NCBI RefSeq assembly: GCF_000024985.1
Contig: NC_013523.1
Location: 1,550,001-1,614,000 of the forward strand
Source: Sphaerobacter thermophilus DSM 20745
GTDB lineage: Bacteria > Chloroflexota > Chloroflexia > Thermomicrobiales > Thermomicrobiaceae
DNA length: 64,000 nt
Direction: 5' to 3'
The number at the start of each line of letters is the position of its first letter. Position 1 is the first letter of the stretch. Position numbers and translations under genes: made by a program. This document shows positions 29,531-49,963 of this stretch, piece by piece. The notes below the pieces were generated by a model. It was not told where the DNA came from and ran no database searches. It saw only the letters and a list, made by a program, of their open reading frames with translations.

Positions 29531-32005
29531 CTAGCCGGCAACGATGTTCACCAGACGTCCCGGAACGTAGATCGTGCGCCGGACCGTGCGGCCCTGCAGG
29601 TGCTCGCGAACACGGTTACTCGCCGTAGCCAGCTCGATCGCGCGCTCCTCGGTGATGTCCGCCGGAACCTCCAGCCGATCCCGAACCTTGCCGTTGACCT
29701 GCACCACCAGCTCGATCATCTCGGCGGCTGCCAGCTCCGGGTCGTACTGGGGCCAGGACTGCTGGTGCACGCTGTACGGCTGTCCCAGCCGCTCCCACAG
29801 CTCTTCGGCCAGGTAGGGCGTCGATGGCGCCAGCAACAGCACCAGCGTCCGCATCGCTTCCCGCCACGCCTCCGTGCGCACCACCTCGGTGTCGCGCAGC
29901 GACGACAGCTCGTTCACGAACTCCATCAGCCGCGCGACCATCGTGTTGAACTGGAACGTCGAGATGTCCTCAGTCACCGCTTTGATGGTGCGGTGCGTGA
30001 TCTTGCGCAGCTTGTGCGCGGCCTCCCCGTCCGGCCCGTCGGCCGGCGTATCAGCCGTCTCGGTCACGATCGTCCAGACGCGCCGGACGAATCGCTCCAC
30101 GCCCGCAATGCCGCGCGACGACCACGGCCCTCCCTGCTCCCACGGCGCGATGAACATTAGGTACAGCCGCACGGTGTCGGCGCCCAACTGCGCGACCAGA
30201 TCGTCCGGATCGACGACGTTCCCGCGGCTCTTGGACATCTTTTCGTTGTCCTCACCCAGGATGATCCCCTGGTTGAACAACCGCAGGAACGGCTCGTCGA
30301 AGGGCAGCAGGCCCAGGTCCCGCAGCGCCTTGGTGAAGAACCGCGCGTACATCAGGTGCATCGTCGCGTGCTCGATGCCACCCGTGTACTGGTCCACCGG
30401 CGTCCAGTACGCGATCGCGTCCGGGTCGAACGGCCGGTCGGCTTCGTGCGGGCTGACGTAGCGGTACTGGTACCAGGACGAGTCGACGAAGGTGTCCATG
30501 GTGTCGGTCTCACGCCGCGCCGGGCCACCACACTCGGGGCACGTCGTGTTGACGAAGCGCTCGTCGGTCTTCAGCGGCGACACCCCGGTGGGCGTGAATT
30601 CGGCGTCCTCCGGCAGCAGCACCGGCAACTGATCCTCCGGGACCGGCACCGTGCCACACTTGTCGCAGTACACGATCGGGATCGGCGTCCCCCAGTAGCG
30701 CTGGCGCGAGATCAGCCAGTCCCGCAGGCGGTACGTGACCGCATGGGAGCCCAGCCCCTGCTCCTCCAGCCACTCGGTGACGCGCCGCACGGCCTCGCCG
30801 CCGGCCGTCGGGGTCCCGTCGAAGGGCCCGGAGTTGACCATCACTCCGTCGCCCGGGTACGCCTCGGTCATCGTCGCCGGGTCCAGCGGCTCCCCTTCGG
30901 GCTGGATCACCACCTGGATTGGCAGGTCATACTTGCGGGCGAACTCGAAGTCGCGCTGGTCGTGCGCGGGTACCGCCATGATCGCCCCGGTGCCGTAGCT
31001 CATCAGCACGTAGTCGGCGATCCAGACCGGAATCTGAGCGCCGTTCACCGGGTTGATGGCGTACCCGCCGGTGAAGACGCCGGTCTTCTCCCGGTCGGTC
31101 GCCGTCCGCTCGATGTCGGTCTCCCGCCGCGTCTGATCCACGTACGCCTCGACGGCGGCCCGCTGCTCGGGGCTCGTCAGCCGCTCAACCAGCGGATGCT
31201 CGGGCGCCAGCACCATGAAGGTCGCACCCCACAACGTGTCCGGCCGTGTGGTGAAGATCTCGATCGCATCCCCCACCGCCGTCTGGAAGCGCACACGCGC
31301 GCCTTCAGAGCGGCCGATCCAGTTGCGCTGCATCGTCATGACCCGCTCGGGCCACTCGATGCCGTCGAAGTTCAGCAGCTCCTCGGCGTACTTGGTGATG
31401 CGGAAGAACCACTGTTCCAGGTCGCGCCGGTAGACCTCGGTCCCGCAGCGCTCGCAGCGGCCGTCGATGACCTGCTCGTTCGCCAGCACCGTCTGGTCTT
31501 TCGGGCACCACCAGACCGGTGCGCTGGCGCGGTAGGCCAGGCCATTCTTGTAGAACTGCAGGAAGAACCACTGGTTCCAGCGGTAGTAGTCCGGCAGACA
31601 GGTGACGACCTCGCGCGACCAATCAAACATCGCGCCCATCGAGCGCAACTGCCGGCGCATGCGCTCGATGTTGTCCATGGTCCACTTGAACGGATGGATG
31701 CCCCGCGTGATCGCAGCGTTCTCCGCCGGCAAGCCGAAGGCATCGAACCCCATCGGGAACAGCACGTTGTAACCCGACATGCGCTTGAAGCGCGCGGCTG
31801 CATCGGACGGCGCCATCGCGTACCAGTGTCCGATGTGCAGGTCGCCCGACGGGTATGGGTACATCGTCAGGTGGTACCACTTGGGGCGATTCGGGTCCTC
31901 GACGACGCGGTAGATCCCGGTCTCGTCCCAAATCTTGCGCCATTTCTCTTCGATCGCGTGCGGCTCATACGCCTCGCGCCGCACCACCTGCTTCGCGGTC
32001 GTCAT
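29531..32005 (-). CDS. leuS: Leucyl-tRNA synthetase
   Basis: From the third of three tandem ATG codons (32003-32005), six bases after AGGAGG, the product is 824 residues. The class I signatures are HIGH at residues 57-60 (GDLHIGH) and KMSKS (EKMSKSRG). The CP1 editing domain (TTRPDTLWGATF) and the C-terminal anticodon-binding region are present, so it is the bacterial single-chain form. It charges tRNA-Leu. Expression is controlled by the T-box leader at 32253-32565, about 250 bases upstream; this long spacing between terminator and start codon is unusual. The in-frame extension to 32149 has no site and is rejected. Confidence 0.96.
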   Translation of the reverse strand: MTTAKQVVRREAYEPHAIEEKWRKIWDETGIYRVVEDPNRPKWYHLTMYPYPSGDLHIGHWYAMAPSDAAARFKRMSGYNVLFPMGFDAFGLPAENAAITRGIHPFKWTMDNIERMRRQLRSMGAMFDWSREVVTCLPDYYRWNQWFFLQFYKNGLAYRASAPVWWCPKDQTVLANEQVIDGRCERCGTEVYRRDLEQWFFRITKYAEELLNFDGIEWPERVMTMQRNWIGRSEGARVRFQTAVGDAIEIFTTRPDTLWGATFMVLAPEHPLVERLTSPEQRAAVEAYVDQTRRETDIERTATDREKTGVFTGGYAINPVNGAQIPVWIADYVLMSYGTGAIMAVPAHDQRDFEFARKYDLPIQVVIQPEGEPLDPATMTEAYPGDGVMVNSGPFDGTPTAGGEAVRRVTEWLEEQGLGSHAVTYRLRDWLISRQRYWGTPIPIVYCDKCGTVPVPEDQLPVLLPEDAEFTPTGVSPLKTDERFVNTTCPECGGPARRETDTMDTFVDSSWYQYRYVSPHEADRPFDPDAIAYWTPVDQYTGGIEHATMHLMYARFFTKALRDLGLLPFDEPFLRLFNQGIILGEDNEKMSKSRGNVVDPDDLVAQLGADTVRLYLMFIAPWEQGGPWSSRGIAGVERFVRRVWTIVTETADTPADGPDGEAAHKLRKITHRTIKAVTEDISTFQFNTMVARLMEFVNELSSLRDTEVVRTEAWREAMRTLVLLLAPSTPYLAEELWERLGQPYSVHQQSWPQYDPELAAAEMIELVVQVNGKVRDRLEVPADITEERAIELATASNRVREHLQGRTVRRTIYVPGRLVNIVAG

Positions 32006-32252
32006 CATCATCCTCCTGTTACGCACCGTTGCGTAGGGGCAAGCGTCGTCATCGTCGCGGGCGGCGATGGGGACTACGCCGCCGAGACAGGGGACGGGCC
32101 CGCGGCAAGCGCCGGCGCGCCGCCGACCGTGCCGTACCGCCCCGGGCACCCCCGGTGTCCGGCTAGGTACGAACGAGATCGGCGCCTCGGGACGATCGCC
32201 ATGGTCACGCCCCTTCCGGTCACGCGGGCCTCCAGTGACGTGGCCTTAAACG

Positions 32253-32565
32253 AGACGAGCCTTTCTCCCATTCAGGGACGAAAGGCTCGTCTTCCGCGGT
32301 ACCACCCTGGTTGATAGGCGGTCTGTGGTGGAGCTGAGGGGACTCGAACCCCTGACTTCAACACTGCCAGTGTTGCGCTCTCCCAGCTGAGCTACAGCCC
32401 CGCGCCTATCCGCTCTCAACCCGATAACGGAGGTTACCCGGTGACGACTACCGGCGGTCGCCCTCACCGTCACAGCTCCCGGGCGAGTTCGGCCTCTGCG
32501 CTGCCTCGCACCTCCCGGCAGCTCGCTGTCGATACGGCCTACTACTCCCGTTCGACGCCTTTACC
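32253..32565 (-). promoter_or_regulatory. Leucine-specific T-box leader of leuS, interrupted by a tRNA gene
   Basis: Read on the - strand. Stem I features: GGAGTAGTA near the 5' end, CAGCGAGC (the AGAGAG-type motif), a distal GGTGCGAGGC loop, and a specifier loop GAA-CTC-GCC followed by CGGGAGC. The specifier CTC (32487-32485) encodes leucine. The T-box sequence proper, AGGGTGGTACCGCGG (32308-32294), is canonical. It runs into a terminator with a 13-bp perfect stem, AGACGAGCCTTTC with GAAAGGCTCGTCT (32292-32253). The helix before the T-box (GATAGGCG with CGCCTATC, extended by GGTT with AACC) encloses the complete tRNA-Ala gene at 32326-32401 in place of a short loop. Uncharged tRNA-Leu(GAG) is the expected ligand. 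Confidence 0.9.
32326..32401 (-). tRNA. tRNA-Ala(GGC), nested in the leuS leader
   Basis: A complete cloverleaf: acceptor GGGGCTG with CAGCTCC (one G-U pair), D-arm AGCTCAGCTGGGAGAGC, an anticodon stem of five pairs with loop CTGGCAG (anticodon GGC), T-arm with GGTTCGAGTCC, discriminator A, and an encoded CCA at 32328-32326. All standard invariant positions are present, so a functional tRNA is likely. It is on the same strand as leuS and lies downstream of the predicted leader promoter. Confidence 0.96.
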
Positions 32566-45315: not shown

Positions 45316-45465
45316 CCGACCCGGCAGCCCCCAGCAAAGGAGCGACGTACAGCCCCACCGCCGGTGATGGTGCCGTCACTGTAGCGCATCCGGGTGACCA
45401 GTGGCATACAGTATGGGACCATTCCCCGCGGCAGGCGCGGCTCGATCGACGAGAGGAGAAGGACC

Positions 45466-46974
45466 GTGCGGATGGGCAACGACGTGGTCGATGTGGTGGT
45501 CGTGGGCACCGGCAACGCCGCCTTCTGCGCCGCCCACGCGGCGCGCGATCACGGCGCCCGCGTGCTCATGCTCGAGAAGGGGCCCGAGGACTGGGTCGGT
45601 GGGAACAGCTACTTCACGGCCGGGGCCTTCCGCATCGCTTTCGACAGCCAGGATGACCTCGTCGCCCTCCTCGCCGATCCGTCGGACGAGCGGCTGCCGC
45701 GCACAGATGTGCCCCCCTACCCTGCTTCGGCGTTCCTGGCGGACCTGGAGCGCCTCACCCTCGGACGCACCGACCCGGTACTGGCGAAGATCCTCGTCGA
45801 GGACTCGCTCGATACCGCCCGCTGGCTGCGCGACCACGGGATTCGATTCCACCTCCAGTACCACCGGCAGGCGTACGAGGTGAACGGCCGATTCCGGTTC
45901 TGGGGCGACCTCCCGCTGGGGACGGTCGGTGGCGGCGAAGGTCTCATCGAGCAGCACCGTGCGACCGCAGAGGCACGGGGCGTCAGGATCCGCTTCGAGT
46001 CGCCGGTCGTCGGGCTCCTACGCGATGCCTCCGGAGCAGTCACCGGTGTCGTGGTCGACGGGCCGAACGGCCGTGAGGAGATTCGCGCCGCCGCGGTGGT
46101 CCTGGCCTGCGGCGGCTTCGAGGCAGACCCGCGCCTTCGCGCGACCTACCTCGGCCCGGGCTGGGACCTGGCGAAGGTTCGCGGGACTCCCCACAACACC
46201 GGCGAGGGCTTGATGGCAGCGCTGGACGTCGGCGCCGAGCCGTACGGCCACTGGAGCGGATGCCACAGTATCCAGTGGGACGCCGGAGCGCCGCCGGCCG
46301 GCGACCGGATCATCACTAACCGCTTCTCGAAGCAGTCCTACCCGATCGGTATCGTCGTCAACGTGCACGGCCGGCGCTTCCTCGACGAGGGCGCCGACTT
46401 CCGCAACTACACGTACGCCCGCTACGGCGCGGAGGTCCTCAAGCAGCCCGGTGCCCTCGCCTGGCAGATCTTTGACGCCAAGACGACGCCGCTGCTGCGC
46501 GACTACGAGTATGCGATCCCCGGTGTCTCCCGAGTCGAAGCTGACACGATCCACGATCTCGCCGTCGCAGCGGGGATCGATCCTGCCGGCCTGGAGCAGA
46601 CCGTGGCCGAGTTCAACCGGGCGGTGCAGCCGGGTGAATTCAACCCCGCGATCAAGGATGGGAAGCGCACCGAGGGGATCACCCCGCCCAAGAGCAACTG
46701 GGCGCTGCCGATCGACACCCCGCCGTTCGTAGCCTTTGCCGTCACCTGCGGCATCACCTTCACCTTCGGCGGCCTGCGGATCGACCCCCAGGCACGCGTC
46801 CTCGGGCGGAACGGGCAGCCGATCCCCGGGCTCCACGCCGCGGGCGAGCTGGTTGGCGGCATCTTCTACCACAACTATCCAGGCGGTTCCGGGCTCACCA
46901 GCGGGGCGGTATTCGGGCGGCGGGCCGGCGTCTCGGCCGCCGCGCATGCGGCTGCCGTCGGTACTCGGGGATAG
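45466..46974 (+). CDS. FAD-dependent dehydrogenase, TcuA / fumarate reductase flavoprotein family
   Basis: The 502-residue protein has an N-terminal Rossmann FAD motif VVVGTGNAAFCAAHAAR and an early LEKGPEDWVGGNSYFT segment typical of TcuA (tricarballylate dehydrogenase). The C-terminal FAD part GLHAAGELVGGIFYHNYPGGSGLTSG belongs to the fumarate reductase/succinate dehydrogenase flavoprotein family. No TcuB electron-transfer partner or transporter is adjacent, so substrate assignment is tentative. GTG 45466 is seven bases after AGGAG; an ATG six bases later is possible. Confidence 0.85.
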   Translation: MRMGNDVVDVVVVGTGNAAFCAAHAARDHGARVLMLEKGPEDWVGGNSYFTAGAFRIAFDSQDDLVALLADPSDERLPRTDVPPYPASAFLADLERLTLGRTDPVLAKILVEDSLDTARWLRDHGIRFHLQYHRQAYEVNGRFRFWGDLPLGTVGGGEGLIEQHRATAEARGVRIRFESPVVGLLRDASGAVTGVVVDGPNGREEIRAAAVVLACGGFEADPRLRATYLGPGWDLAKVRGTPHNTGEGLMAALDVGAEPYGHWSGCHSIQWDAGAPPAGDRIITNRFSKQSYPIGIVVNVHGRRFLDEGADFRNYTYARYGAEVLKQPGALAWQIFDAKTTPLLRDYEYAIPGVSRVEADTIHDLAVAAGIDPAGLEQTVAEFNRAVQPGEFNPAIKDGKRTEGITPPKSNWALPIDTPPFVAFAVTCGITFTFGGLRIDPQARVLGRNGQPIPGLHAAGELVGGIFYHNYPGGSGLTSGAVFGRRAGVSAAAHAAAVGTRG

Positions 46975-47104: not shown

Positions 47105-47132
47105 TTGACCACGCCCCACACTGCGCTATACT
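47105..47132 (+). promoter_or_regulatory. Promoter of the FMN riboswitch transcript
   Basis: TTGACC (47105-47110), 16 bases, TATACT (47127-47132). The predicted start is about 6 bases before the riboswitch P1 helix. Confidence 0.72.
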
Positions 47133-47144
47133 GAAGCCAGCAAG

Positions 47145-47269
47145 ACCTTCGGGGCAGGGTGCGGCGCGCAGCGCCAATTCCCGACCGGCGGTGATAGCCC
47201 GCGAGCGGCGCAAGCCGCAGGATCCGGTGGAATTCCGGAGCCGACGGTATAGTCCGGATGGGAGAAGGT
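47145..47269 (+). promoter_or_regulatory. FMN riboswitch (RFN element)
   Basis: The aptamer is closed by ACCTTC (47145-47150) with GAAGGT (47264-47269). Conserved RFN blocks are all present in order: TTCGGGGCAGGGTG, AATTCCCGACCGGCGGT, AGCCCGCGAGC, GATCCGGTGGAATTCCGG, AGCCGACGGTATAGTCCGGATGG (quoted in parts). It binds FMN and normally switches off riboflavin synthesis or uptake genes. A factor-independent terminator follows directly, so control is by attenuation of the downstream ABC transporter genes. Confidence 0.95.
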
Positions 47270-47291
47270 TGCCACCTATCCCGCATGGCGC

Positions 47292-47313
47292 ACCCGAGGA
47301 GTCTTCCTCGGGT
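47292..47313 (+). terminator. Riboswitch-controlled attenuator
   Basis: ACCCGAGGA (47292-47300) pairs with TCCTCGGGT (47305-47313) around GTCT and is followed by TTTCTTG. It lies 23 bases after the FMN aptamer. Confidence 0.8.
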
Positions 47314-47441
47314 TTCTTGCTGTCCTACGAGCGCGACGCGGGTCCCCGAGGCTTGACAGAGATGGATCGGCCGCTGGCGCGGCCGCGCACGAGGTGCCCA
47401 TCAGCGGGGCGTTTCGTGGTGCCCTATCCGGAGCGAGGATC

Positions 47442-48329
47442 ATGGCTCGGACGGCCCGCACCGCTTGTGTCGAAGAAGCACCTGCATCCCCGATCCTGCG
47501 CGACGATCCCCAGGTCGCGCCGATCCGCGTGCCCGTGGAACGCGAGCGCAAGCGATCGTCGCCCGCGCGTGGAATCCCGCAGCGGGCAGCGCGGTGGCTG
47601 CCCGCGTTGGTACTGGGCCTGCTGGCGTTGGTGCTCTGGGAGGCGCTCAGCCGCTCTGGAACTGTCTCCTCCTTTCTCCTCCCGGCACCGGGTGACGTTG
47701 CCGAGACGTTCGCCCGCGCGCTGCGCAGCGGCCTGCTCTGGCGCTATGCGCGCGTGACGCTGGTTGAGAGCCTGGCAGGGTTTGCGCTGGGCACCGCCGT
47801 GGCCCTCCCGACCGGCTACGCCATCGCCCGGAGCCGGCTGCTGTCACGCGCACTGGAGCCCTACCTCGCCGCCAGCCAGGCGCTGCCCGCAATCGCACTG
47901 GCGCCACTGCTCGTCATCTGGCTCGGCTACGGCCTGCGCGCCGTGGCGGTTCTCTGCGCCCTCATCGTCTTCTTCCCGATGGTGGTCAACACCGCGCTCG
48001 GCCTGCGCACGCTCGACCCGGAGCCCGTCGACGCCGCGCGGGTAGACGGCGCGGACCGATGGAGCCTGCTATGGCACATCGAGCTGCCTCTGGCGTTGCC
48101 TAGCATCTTGGCCGGGATGCGCACCGGCCTCACCCTCTCGATCACCGGAGCGGTCGTCGGTGAGTTCGTCCTGGGCGACCGGGGGCTGGGCGGGCTGCTC
48201 ATCATAGCCCGCGGCAACTTCGACACGCCGCTCGTCTTCGCGACGCTGCTGATGCTGGTGATGCTCGCGGCGGCGATGTACGGCATCGCGCGCCTGGTCG
48301 AGCGTTGGTTGTCATACGTGGAGGAGTGA
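47442..48329 (+). CDS. ribX: ABC permease of riboflavin uptake, RibX-like
   Basis: From ATG 47442 (AGGA four bases upstream) the product is 295 residues with about six transmembrane segments. The EAA loop typical of ABC permeases reads EPVDAARVDGADRWSLLWHIELP. It belongs to the SsuC/ThiX-like group. The FMN riboswitch just upstream and the NMT1-type binding protein just downstream identify it as RibX of the RibXY riboflavin transporter reported from Chloroflexi genomes. No ATPase gene is linked, so an ATPase encoded elsewhere would be needed. An in-frame ATG at 47394 is the alternative start. Confidence 0.82.
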   Translation: MARTARTACVEEAPASPILRDDPQVAPIRVPVERERKRSSPARGIPQRAARWLPALVLGLLALVLWEALSRSGTVSSFLLPAPGDVAETFARALRSGLLWRYARVTLVESLAGFALGTAVALPTGYAIARSRLLSRALEPYLAASQALPAIALAPLLVIWLGYGLRAVAVLCALIVFFPMVVNTALGLRTLDPEPVDAARVDGADRWSLLWHIELPLALPSILAGMRTGLTLSITGAVVGEFVLGDRGLGGLLIIARGNFDTPLVFATLLMLVMLAAAMYGIARLVERWLSYVEE

Positions 48330-48330
48330 G

Positions 48331-49350
48331 ATGGAACCGCGGGGGAGAGGGCGTGCACGGCTTGCAGGACGGTCTCGGCTACTGACGCTGCTGCTCGTCG
48401 CGGCGCTGATAATCGCCGCCTGCGGCAGCGATGCCGAGGCACAGCCTGAACGTGACGTCACCATCGGGCTCGGCTACGTGCCCAACATCCAGTTCGCCCC
48501 GTTCTACGTCGCCGACGCGCTGGGCTACTACAAGGATGAAGGCTTGAACGTGACCTTCCGCCACCACACGGTCGGCGAGGACCTCTTCGGCGCCATCGTC
48601 GCCGGGCAGGAGGACATCATCTTCGCCGCGGGCGACGAGGTGCTGCAGGCCCGTAGCCGCGGCCTCGACCTCGTCTACGTGGCGCAGGTCTGGAACCGCT
48701 ACCCCGTCGGGCTGATCGTCCCGGCCGACTCGGATATCCAGAGCGTCGCGGATCTCCCCGGCCATACGGTCGGGATCCCCGGCAAGTTCGGCGCAACCTA
48801 CATCGGCCTGCTCGCCATGCTGAAGGCCGCCGGGTTGGCCGAGGAGGACGTTGATATCCAGAGCATTGGCTTCACCCAGGTCCCGGCGCTGCTGGAAAAC
48901 CAGGTCGATGCCGTCATGGGCTACCTCAACAACGAGCCGCTCCAGCTCGAGAAGGCAGGGCTGCCGGTTCGCACGATGGCAGCCGCGGACGCGCAACCGC
49001 TCATCTCGAACGGGCTGGTCGTCCTGCGTGAGTATCTCGATTCCAACCCAGACGACGTCCGCGCGGTGATCGCCGCGACGCTCAAGGGGGTACAGTACAC
49101 CCTTGACAACCCCGAAGAGGCCGTCGACCTGAGCAAGGACTACGTGCCCGGCCTCGACAGCGAAGCGAACGCCGCGGACGCTCTGGCCGTGCTCCAGGCC
49201 ACCCTCCCGCTCTGGCAGACCAGCGGCACGATGGGCGAGACCGACCCGGCCGCCTGGGAGTCGATGGCGCAGTTCCTCGACGAGATCGGGCAGCTCGGCG
49301 GCCCCGTGGACGTGACGGAGGCGTTCACCAACGAGTACCTGCCCGAGTAA
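48331..49350 (+). CDS. ribY: Solute-binding lipoprotein of riboflavin uptake, RibY-like
   Basis: The 339-residue protein has a signal peptide ending in LIIAAC (lipobox). An NMT1/THI5-like domain begins LGYVPNIQFAPFYVADALGYYKDEGL in parts. The ATG is one base after the permease stop and GGAGGAG lies just upstream. In this family flavin or pyrimidine-like compounds are bound; control by an FMN riboswitch argues for riboflavin. A 12-bp perfect hairpin 51 bases past the stop ends the transcript. Confidence 0.85.
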   Translation: MEPRGRGRARLAGRSRLLTLLLVAALIIAACGSDAEAQPERDVTIGLGYVPNIQFAPFYVADALGYYKDEGLNVTFRHHTVGEDLFGAIVAGQEDIIFAAGDEVLQARSRGLDLVYVAQVWNRYPVGLIVPADSDIQSVADLPGHTVGIPGKFGATYIGLLAMLKAAGLAEEDVDIQSIGFTQVPALLENQVDAVMGYLNNEPLQLEKAGLPVRTMAAADAQPLISNGLVVLREYLDSNPDDVRAVIAATLKGVQYTLDNPEEAVDLSKDYVPGLDSEANAADALAVLQATLPLWQTSGTMGETDPAAWESMAQFLDEIGQLGGPVDVTEAFTNEYLPE

Positions 49351-49400
49351 CGGGCCGTCCGGTCACTCCGGGGAACACAGCCGCCCCCGGCACAACGTCT

Positions 49401-49442
49401 GCGCGGGCAACGGCGTGCGCGAGCGCGCATCGTTGCCCGCGC
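49401..49442 (+). terminator. Terminator of the rib operon
   Basis: GCGCGGGCAACG (49401-49412) pairs perfectly with CGTTGCCCGCGC (49431-49442). A second TGCGCG/CGCGCA stem sits inside the loop. Confidence 0.7.
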
Positions 49443-49462
49443 ACTCGTATGGGGCGGCCACG

Positions 49463-49963
49463 ATGAACACTGATCGGCTGTTCGAACCGCTGACCGAGTC
49501 CGACTTGCAACCCCTGCGAGAGATCGCGCTGGCGGAGCATTCCGCGTTCTTCGCGCGGAATCCGTACCTGGAAGCGGCTTATGCCGGTCACCTGATCGGG
49601 ATCTGCCTCTGCCAGGGCGCCGCGTCACACTATCTTGACCCGAGGATCGGTGTGAAGGACTTCGATATCTGGTTCTTCTACCGGGAGGACCCACGCGCTC
49701 GTATTCCCCACCGCGCCCGGAAGCGCGTCCCCGACGGCCCGAAGGGCCGCCCGATCGATTTCCTCCGGAGAGCGATCCCGGCGCCCGAGGCTGAACGCTA
49801 TGCTGATGACCCTGCGGGGGCGATCATGGCGTACCTGCTCCAGCGGGATACGGCGACTAAACGCGCCCTCCTGCAGAAGGCTGTCGTCGGCCTCGCCCCC
49901 GACGCCCTCTTCGGGCGAATCCTCTGGCGCGGCACCGAGGATCACGCGGCTTCCGGCGGGTGA
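49463..49963 (+). CDS. Unrecognised protein with a nucleotidyltransferase-like segment
   Basis: From ATG 49463 the product is 166 residues. I cannot name a family. The segment CQGAASHYLDPRIGVKDFDIW in the first third has a small-residue helix followed by DxD-type acids (KDFDIW), reminiscent of the active site of MNT/aminoglycoside-type nucleotidyltransferases. The rest is basic then helical and Ala-rich. The ribosome binding site is weak. It overlaps at its 3' end with a small antisense membrane ORF by 22 bases. Confidence 0.65.
   Translation: MNTDRLFEPLTESDLQPLREIALAEHSAFFARNPYLEAAYAGHLIGICLCQGAASHYLDPRIGVKDFDIWFFYREDPRARIPHRARKRVPDGPKGRPIDFLRRAIPAPEAERYADDPAGAIMAYLLQRDTATKRALLQKAVVGLAPDALFGRILWRGTEDHAASGG

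What the first reader, a model, noticed from the sequence alone, without database searches (positions are those of the whole stretch)
47105..49442. FMN riboswitch controlling a two-gene riboflavin uptake system without ATPase
Promoter, RFN aptamer, attenuator, permease, binding lipoprotein and terminator make a tidy unit. The absence of an ATPase means the pair must borrow one or be energised differently. It is a clean prediction of vitamin uptake in this organism.
Basis: partly seen in the sequence, partly recalled or inferred. Interest (0 to 1): 0.5.

Follow-up and report, generated by a model that had tools for sequence, protein, structure and literature searches.

The report
Riboflavin importer that borrows its motor
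An FMN-sensing RNA switch sits in front of two genes for taking up vitamin B2, a known system called RibXY; the docking loop of its channel protein looks as if it had been remade to use a shared energy-supplying protein encoded elsewhere in the genome.

Summary
A consensus-like promoter, an FMN riboswitch (RF00050, 96.8 bits, 47141-47273), an intrinsic terminator, a permease (47442-48329) and a lipoprotein of the NMT1/THI5 family (48331-49350) form one unit with no ATPase gene beside it. The hairpin after the unit is strong but lacks a T-run. This is RibXY, predicted for Chloroflexi in 2013 as lacking an ATPase and shown in 2015 to support riboflavin uptake (C. aurantiacus pair in E. coli). 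The genome, probably a Sphaerobacter, has one other FMN switch, in front of ribD-ribE-ribB-ribH, so no ATPase under FMN control was found.

New here: the EAAxxxG coupling loop is present in 104 of 106 readable RibX without a neighbouring ATPase gene (ribZ) and in 1 of 45 with it; '[DE]G' in 80 versus 0. The ribZ-less rows are nearly one clade, so this is about one evolutionary event. '-DGA-' is the loop of E. coli MalF, MalG, UgpA and UgpE, not of SsuC or TauC. The likeliest motor is the genome's one UgpC/MsmX-type ATPase, unlinked (about 0.45); ThiZ is the rival. Ligand and partner are inferred, not shown.

Aside: a tRNA-Ala(GGC) gene lies inside the leuS T-box leader.

The parts
47105..47132 (+). 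sigma-70-like promoter, TTGACC - 16 nt - TATACT
   Evidence: 10 of 12 consensus bases; 1 found, 0.2 expected; spacing also
47141..47273 (+). FMN riboswitch aptamer (RFN element)
   Evidence: RF00050, 96.8 bits, model positions 1-138 of 138;
47292..47313 (+). intrinsic terminator (attenuator) of the riboswitch; its 5' arm can instead pair with the 5' strand of aptamer helix P1
47442..48329 (+). ribX: ABC importer permease, 295 aa (SsuC/ThiX type)
   Evidence: PF00528 117.4 bits; best NCBIfam matches SaoP, SsuC and TauC permeases, all below their cut-offs
48030..48089 (+). coupling (EAA) loop of RibX, DAARVDGADRWSLLWHIELP
   Evidence: coordinates counted on the sequence
48331..49350 (+). ribY: substrate-binding lipoprotein, 339 aa, NMT1/THI5-like
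   Evidence: PF09084 167.5 bits; best PDB match 3ix1, a formyl-aminopyrimidine-binding protein, E 5.9e-21; lipobox IAAC by eye
49400..49443 (+). strong hairpin after ribY, without a T-run; possible transcript end
   Evidence: not listed by the terminator scan

Best explanation
The locus is a RibXY riboflavin importer under FMN feedback (the confidence given is for this). When FMN is scarce, the 5' strand of aptamer helix P1 can pair with the terminator's 5' arm and transcription continues; FMN binding fixes P1, the terminator forms, and uptake is shut off. RibY, a lipoprotein, binds riboflavin outside the membrane and delivers it to a RibX homodimer. RibX has an intact EAA coupling loop, so it needs an ATPase, and none is encoded beside it (borrowing: about 0.85). 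In this lineage the dedicated ATPase, ribZ, was probably lost about once, and near the same branch the loop changed from a ThiX-like form to EAA..GA, often DGA. The motor is most likely the genome's one UgpC/MsmX-type ATPase (C1:2290882-2292042), unlinked to any permease gene and a plausible motor for the ATPase-less sugar permeases too (this step about 0.45). Shown: the RNA, the genes, the lack of a neighbouring ATPase, the loop contrast. Inferred: ligand, switch direction, direction of the evolutionary change, partner.
For: FMN switch at the genes in 57 of 60 relatives. Known system (passages of PMC3766115 and PMC4418817, section 14 of the latter). Two FMN switches in the genome, the other before rib biosynthesis. 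In 38 ribZ-less relatives, all 20 FMN loci away from ribXY carry rib biosynthesis genes and 0 of 20 an ATPase match (L215 and L229 are short stretches, cut at contig ends). Of the 80 best RibXY relatives, an ATPase was seen beside the genes in 36 and not in 44 (some of the 44 lie near contig ends). With the loop columns left out, 42 of 43 ribZ-less rows lie on one side of a branch (SH-aLRT 93; L093 is outside). EAAxxxG-type loop (A, G or C third, G seventh): 104 of 106 ribZ-less rows, the window included, 1 of 45 with ribZ; '[DE]G': 80 and 0 (two sets that share some genomes). E. coli MalF, MalG, UgpA and UgpE have DGA, SsuC and TauC do not. In this genome 0 of 19 readable permease loops within 5 kb of an ATPase match have DGA; the 4 that do (RibX, a MalF/MalG-type pair, a ModB-type permease) have none that near. 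One ATPase passes the UgpC cut-off (484.8 bits against 432); no ABC permease match lies within 160 kb of it.
Against: The loop contrast rests on about one evolutionary event, so it is one observation and not many. Eight of the 45 ribZ-bearing rows also have G at the seventh place, one of them with the full EAAxxxG pattern. L093 and L335 lack a neighbouring ribZ but keep the old loop. One of the three other DGA permeases is ModB-type, not sugar-type, so DGA does not point to MalK/UgpC partners alone. The Chloroflexales pairs, with the probable C. aurantiacus one, have 'SGA' rather than 'DGA'. UgpC-like ATPases occur in 43 of 44 ribZ-less and 34 of 36 ribZ-bearing genomes and ThiZ-like ones in 37 of 38 ribZ-less genomes, so co-occurrence does not decide. 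Multitask ATPases are reported only for CUT1 sugar importers (PMC7658222, passages). The pairing proposed for antitermination is only mildly better than shuffles.
Confidence: 0.9

Rival explanations
1. RibXY is energised by ThiZ, the ATPase of the genome's homologous Z-X-Y operon beside the thiamine genes.
For: This ATPase (C1:1641381-1642166) is the genome's best match to a nitrate-type ATPase model (223.9 bits, cut-off 291.8 not reached); the neighbouring permease is 34% identical to RibX; ThiZ-like ATPases are in 37 of 38 ribZ-less genomes. Precedent: P5PAB worked with AfuC, the ATPase of its homologue AfuABC (PMC8427247, passages).
Against: The ThiX-like permease has the loop DLLRSVNASEWQ, like most RibX proteins that travel with ribZ, while RibX has DAARVDGADRW: the surface that would meet ThiZ has changed. 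One ribZ-less genome (G142) has no ThiZ-like match, but its pair has no FMN switch in front and may not be RibXY.
Confidence: 0.25
2. The pair works without ATP hydrolysis, as a facilitator or a binding-protein-dependent secondary carrier.
For: The C. aurantiacus pair alone rescued an E. coli ribB deletion at 2.5 uM riboflavin; the clone held the ribXY operon and no ATPase gene is named (PMC4418817 section 14).
Against: The EAA coupling loop, known as the ATPase docking site, is kept in 104 of 106 ribZ-less RibX. E. coli has its own MalK, UgpC, SsuB and TauB that could serve.
Confidence: 0.1
3. The binding protein carries a thiamine precursor or another heterocycle, and the FMN switch is incidental.
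For: Best PDB matches are a formyl-aminopyrimidine-binding protein, an unnamed solute-binding protein and THI5.
Against: FMN switch at the genes in 57 of 60 relatives; RibXY of C. aurantiacus shown to take up riboflavin and its RibY reported to bind flavins (passages of PMC4418817; the binding paper itself was not held); a separate thiamine-linked Z-X-Y operon exists.
Confidence: 0.05

Closest known systems
RibXY riboflavin transporter (Chloroflexi; C. aurantiacus Caur_0816-0817; S. davaonensis rosB cluster)
   Same: FMN riboswitch (in Chloroflexi), SsuC/ThiX-type permease, NMT1/THI5-like lipoprotein, no ATPase in the operon
   Different: No functional difference is known
RibXYZ (RibXY with an adjacent ATPase; Anaerolineae and others here). 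The same name RibZ is used in print for an unrelated Clostridium transporter
   Same: FMN switch, permease, binding protein
   Different: Has the ATPase; coupling loop mostly of ThiX type (such as LMRSLRA) instead of EAA..GA
ThiXYZ (HMP/thiamine-precursor ABC importer)
   Same: Homologous permease and binding protein
   Different: Own ATPase, thiamine gene context; here a separate operon at C1:1639-1642 kb
CUT1 sugar importers that share MsmX/MsmK/MsiK/UgpC ATPases
   Same: ATPase-less operon; EAA..DGA coupling loop; an unlinked UgpC-type ATPase in the genome
   Different: Sugar substrates, two different permease subunits; PMC7658222 (passages) reports sharing for CUT1 sugar importers exclusively
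P5PAB vitamin B6 importer of Actinobacillus
   Same: Two-gene vitamin importer without ATPase that works with a borrowed one (AfuC)
   Different: Different binding protein (AfuA-like); the partner is the homologous system's own ATPase

Membership tests
RF00050 FMN riboswitch | covariance-model score above the curated gathering score, full length | tested here: met
   96.8 bits against 66.2, positions 1-138 of 138
RF00050 FMN riboswitch | binds FMN and switches transcription | not testable with these tools
   terminator and a candidate antiterminator pairing are present; no assay possible
RibXY | FMN riboswitch directly upstream | tested here: met
RibXY | PF00528 permease plus PF09084-type binding protein in one operon | tested here: met
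   one base between the genes
RibXY | no ATPase in the operon, none under another FMN switch | tested here: met
RibXY | orthology to the experimentally tested C. aurantiacus pair | tested here: inconclusive
   same ribZ-less clade; by BLASTP to L108 from G118, RibX 44% and RibY 41% identical.
RibXY | riboflavin binding and uptake | not testable with these tools
   uptake shown in print for C. aurantiacus (PMC4418817) and stated for Streptomyces (PMC11039241, passages)
ThiXYZ | ATPase in the operon | tested here: not met
ThiXYZ | thiamine gene or TPP-riboswitch context | tested here: not met
   FMN switch instead, no TPP match in the window; the thiamine-linked operon is elsewhere
client of a UgpC/MsmX-type shared ATPase | coupling loop of the MalF/MalG/UgpA/UgpE type (EAA..DGA) | tested here: met
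   caveat: a ModB-type permease shares it
client of a UgpC/MsmX-type shared ATPase | an unlinked ATPase of that type in the genome | tested here: met
   C1:2290897-2291988, 484.8 bits against 432; no ABC permease match within 160 kb
client of a UgpC/MsmX-type shared ATPase | functional or physical partnership | not testable with these tools
   needs gene removal and uptake assay

The most novel reading that the evidence does not exclude
RibXY without ribZ is a vitamin importer that changed motors: it lost its dedicated ThiZ-type ATPase and remodelled its coupling loop to plug into the multitask UgpC/MsmX/MsiK-type ATPase of the sugar importers, a non-sugar client of that hub, conserved across Ktedonobacteria, Sphaerobacter and Actinobacteria. 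Riboflavin uptake would then compete with sugar uptake for one ATPase.
Probability: 0.42. Interest if true: 0.55.

Novelty: new member of a known kind. Interest (0 to 1): 0.33.

Why it matters
RibXY has been known since 2013 to lack an ATPase, and the passages I read name no partner. The loop contrast gives a concrete, cheap test of which ATPase it borrows, and a case in which loss of a motor and change of its docking site fall on nearly the same part of the tree. If right, the multitask ATPase hub described for sugar importers also serves vitamin uptake.

Tried and rejected
Orphan ATPase under another FMN riboswitch: not found, the genome has two FMN switches. In 38 relatives without a neighbouring ribZ, all 20 FMN loci away from ribXY were fetched and 0 of 20 hold an ATPase match (L215 and L229 are short because their contigs end there).

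Co-occurrence as a way to name the partner: uninformative. UgpC-like ATPases in 43 of 44 ribZ-less and 34 of 36 ribZ-bearing genomes; ThiZ-like in 37 of 38 ribZ-less (ribZ-bearing genomes were not searched for ThiZ).

'DGA means a sugar-type permease': rejected as stated, since one of the four DGA permeases in this genome is ModB-type. The weaker statement kept: no DGA among 19 readable loops with an ATPase match within 5 kb.

Led nowhere: a search of 13 genomes with the SsuC model; plasmids, whose best place is 47% identical (Streptomyces camelliae) and whose other nine listed are about 30% or less; paper searches, seen as listings only, apart from PMC7658222.

Not run: structure prediction of RibY, which would confirm the fold but not tell flavin from pyrimidine. 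The paper reporting flavin binding by RibY (PubMed 25345570) was not held. GTP cyclohydrolase II (ribA) was not looked for outside the rib operon.

Organism: relatives named (RibY 90% identical to Sphaerobacter sp. HOG56) suggest genus Sphaerobacter.

Mistakes made and repeated correctly: one search used a wrong frame for ribX and a wrong ORF for one ATPase; a loop pattern failed in 36 and partly in 40 (redone by alignment in 41, 48, 81); the EAA test was looser than that of 81 and gave 7 ribZ-bearing rows as EAA; misread minus-strand loci; searches failed on stop codons for the same reason; one search asked beyond a locus end.

Full report
What is there. The window is C1:1550001-1614000 of a 3,993,764-base genome in two contigs. 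RibY's closest named relatives are from two Sphaerobacter MAGs, 90% and 80% identical. At 47105-47132 there is a promoter-like pair of hexamers, followed at 47141-47273 by an FMN riboswitch aptamer of 96.8 bits and at 47292-47313 by a GC-rich hairpin with a short T-rich tail. The 5' strand of the aptamer's closing helix can pair with the 5' arm of that hairpin (-16.0 kcal/mol, against -9.5 for P1 as computed alone and -16.4 for the terminator). That is the usual layout of FMN-dependent termination; 72 of 2000 shuffles pair as well, so this part is weak by itself. RibX (47442-48329) is a one-domain ABC permease, and RibY (48331-49350) a lipoprotein of the NMT1/THI5 family. After RibY a strong hairpin (49400-49443) stands without a T-run.

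What it is. Sun et al. 2013 (PMC3766115, passages read) named RibXY in Chloroflexi, said that it is homologous to ThiXYZ but lacks an ATPase component, and found it behind FMN riboswitches in all the Chloroflexi genomes they analysed. The 2015 PLoS One paper (PMC4418817, passages and section 14) showed that the C. aurantiacus pair lets an E. coli riboflavin auxotroph grow at 2.5 uM riboflavin. It also reports that others found flavin binding by RibY and, in a few Chloroflexi, an associated ATPase gene, ribZ. [quoted passage not shown] The finding is therefore a member of a known kind; this species may already be listed in the 2014 Chloroflexi survey, which I could not read.

Conservation. RibY was searched in 201 genomes of the phylum; 106 match at 1e-20 or better, with paralogues among the matches. 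I took the neighbourhoods of the 60 best-scoring matches other than the window (35-59% identical). An FMN switch stands in the same direction at the genes in 57 of 60: 52 by a sequence pattern and 5 more by Rfam; L094, L106 and L111 have none. In L115 and L124 the switch stands directly before ribY. The next 20 matches were added, making 80. The four genomes of a sister genus in the same family that this draw included have no close RibY (best matches between 2e-22 and 6e-21, or none). In the RibX tree the window groups with families that contig lengths link to Ktedonobacterales, rather than with its own class. Transfer or patchy loss is likely.

Where is the ATPase? Not under FMN control as far as seen: the only other FMN switch of the genome at E 0.001 precedes ribD, ribE, ribB and ribH. 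In the 38 ribZ-less relatives among the first 60, FMN switches were searched; all 20 loci away from ribXY were fetched, all 20 carry rib biosynthesis genes and none an ATPase match. Among the 80 relatives an ATPase was seen beside ribXY in 36 and not in 44. Some of the 44 stretches end early at contig ends (for example L105, L163, L179), so the 44 is an upper bound. Two of the 80 (L094, L115) have no RibX beside RibY.

The coupling loop. ABC permeases dock their ATPase with the EAA loop. RibX proteins that travel with ribZ mostly have a loop like that of the genome's ThiX-like permease (for example DLMRSLRATRLQ..LEIPAALP), while ribZ-less ones have EAA..GA, in the window DAARVDGADRWSLLWHIELP. 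Counted on an alignment of 152 RibX rows, 151 readable, with the test 'A, G or C third and G seventh': 104 of 106 ribZ-less and 1 of 45 ribZ-bearing. Eight of the 45 have the seventh-place G, so the main difference is in the 'AA' and in the residue before the G. Aspartate or glutamate there: 80 ribZ-less and 0 ribZ-bearing. The rows come from two collections that share some genomes, so they are not all independent. In a tree built without the loop columns, 42 of 43 ribZ-less rows lie on one side of a branch (SH-aLRT 93, quick method), and the 43rd, L093, keeps the old loop. The change thus happened about once; L335 is a second ribZ-less row with the ThiX-type loop. The tree alone does not tell loss from gain of ribZ; the ThiX-like loop of ribZ systems makes loss more likely.

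Which partner? E. coli MalF, MalG, UgpA and UgpE, whose ATPases are MalK and UgpC, all have DGA in this loop; SsuC and TauC do not. In the window's genome 71 permease matches were found, 70 read, and 43 gave a loop that passed my scoring; the ThiX-like permease itself fell below the score. Of the 19 within 5 kb of an ATPase match none has DGA; of the 24 further away four have it: RibX, a MalF/MalG-type pair and a ModB-type permease. The ATPase list used for distances came from one nitrate-type model and may miss some, and most of the 24 look like peptide permeases by their loops. One ATPase passes the UgpC cut-off (484.8 bits); it resembles MalK, SugC and MsmX structures and stands beside a SIS-domain gene (by eye), not a permease. 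The next seven matches score 340.3 or less. I therefore favour that ATPase as RibX's motor, at roughly 0.45, over ThiZ at 0.25. Reported sharing of such ATPases is limited to CUT1 sugar importers (PMC7658222, passages); a borrowed ATPase for a two-gene vitamin importer has a precedent in P5PAB (PMC8427247, passages). Paper searches around RibXY (capped listings) and the passages I read showed no paper naming the partner; subscription journals are mostly not held.

Confidence. That this is an FMN-regulated RibXY pair: 0.9. That it needs a borrowed ATPase: about 0.85. That the partner is the UgpC/MsmX-type ATPase: about 0.45.

Noticed in passing
window 32271-32564 (-), tRNA at 32326-32401 (-): A complete tRNA-Ala(GGC) gene lies, in the same direction, inside the T-box leader (RF00230, 94.5 bits) of leuS (29531-32149, named by eye), in the loop of the hairpin between stem III and the T-box sequence (arms GATAGGCG/CGCCTATC). 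A similarity search of the genome found two other tRNA-Ala genes, with TGC and CGC anticodons, so it may be the only Ala(GGC) gene. The T-box was searched in 21 genomes of the family, and 20 long T-box loci of these were fetched. Six hold a tRNA-Ala(GGC) within the T-box match: both other genomes of the window's genus, and 4 of the 5 of a second genus, the fifth (G202) not fetched. The loci fetched from three further genera hold none, but I did not check that these are leuS leaders, nor the downstream gene in relatives. Making the tRNA would seem to cut the riboswitch. Nothing on it was evident in the listings of paper searches.
   Followed up: partly
window 45394-46974 (+): The gene upstream of the riboswitch is a strong match to FAD-dependent tricarballylate dehydrogenase TcuA (NF006130, 612.1 bits against cut-off 369): a flavoenzyme next to a flavin importer, perhaps without meaning.
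   Followed up: no
window 49415-49963 (+): Open frame after the unit, start perhaps ATG 49463, with no Pfam or NCBIfam match at E 0.001.
   Followed up: no
G000 C2:728712-729281 (locus L233): ModB-type molybdate permease with an IDGA loop and no ATPase match within 5 kb; it may share the same unlinked ATPase as RibX.
   Followed up: partly
loci, such as L268-L312: RibXY pairs with a DGA or DGV loop are also in Streptomyces, Georgenia, Actinomycetaceae and other actinobacteria, many behind FMN switches. Five Streptomyces/Kitasatospora/Saccharothrix loci (L268, L277, L293, L294, L295) show no FMN match and L275 one on the other strand, perhaps roseoflavin-type clusters. Three Ktedonobacter/Ktedonospora loci (L281, L284, L285) hold a RibY without RibX or FMN match.
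   Followed up: no
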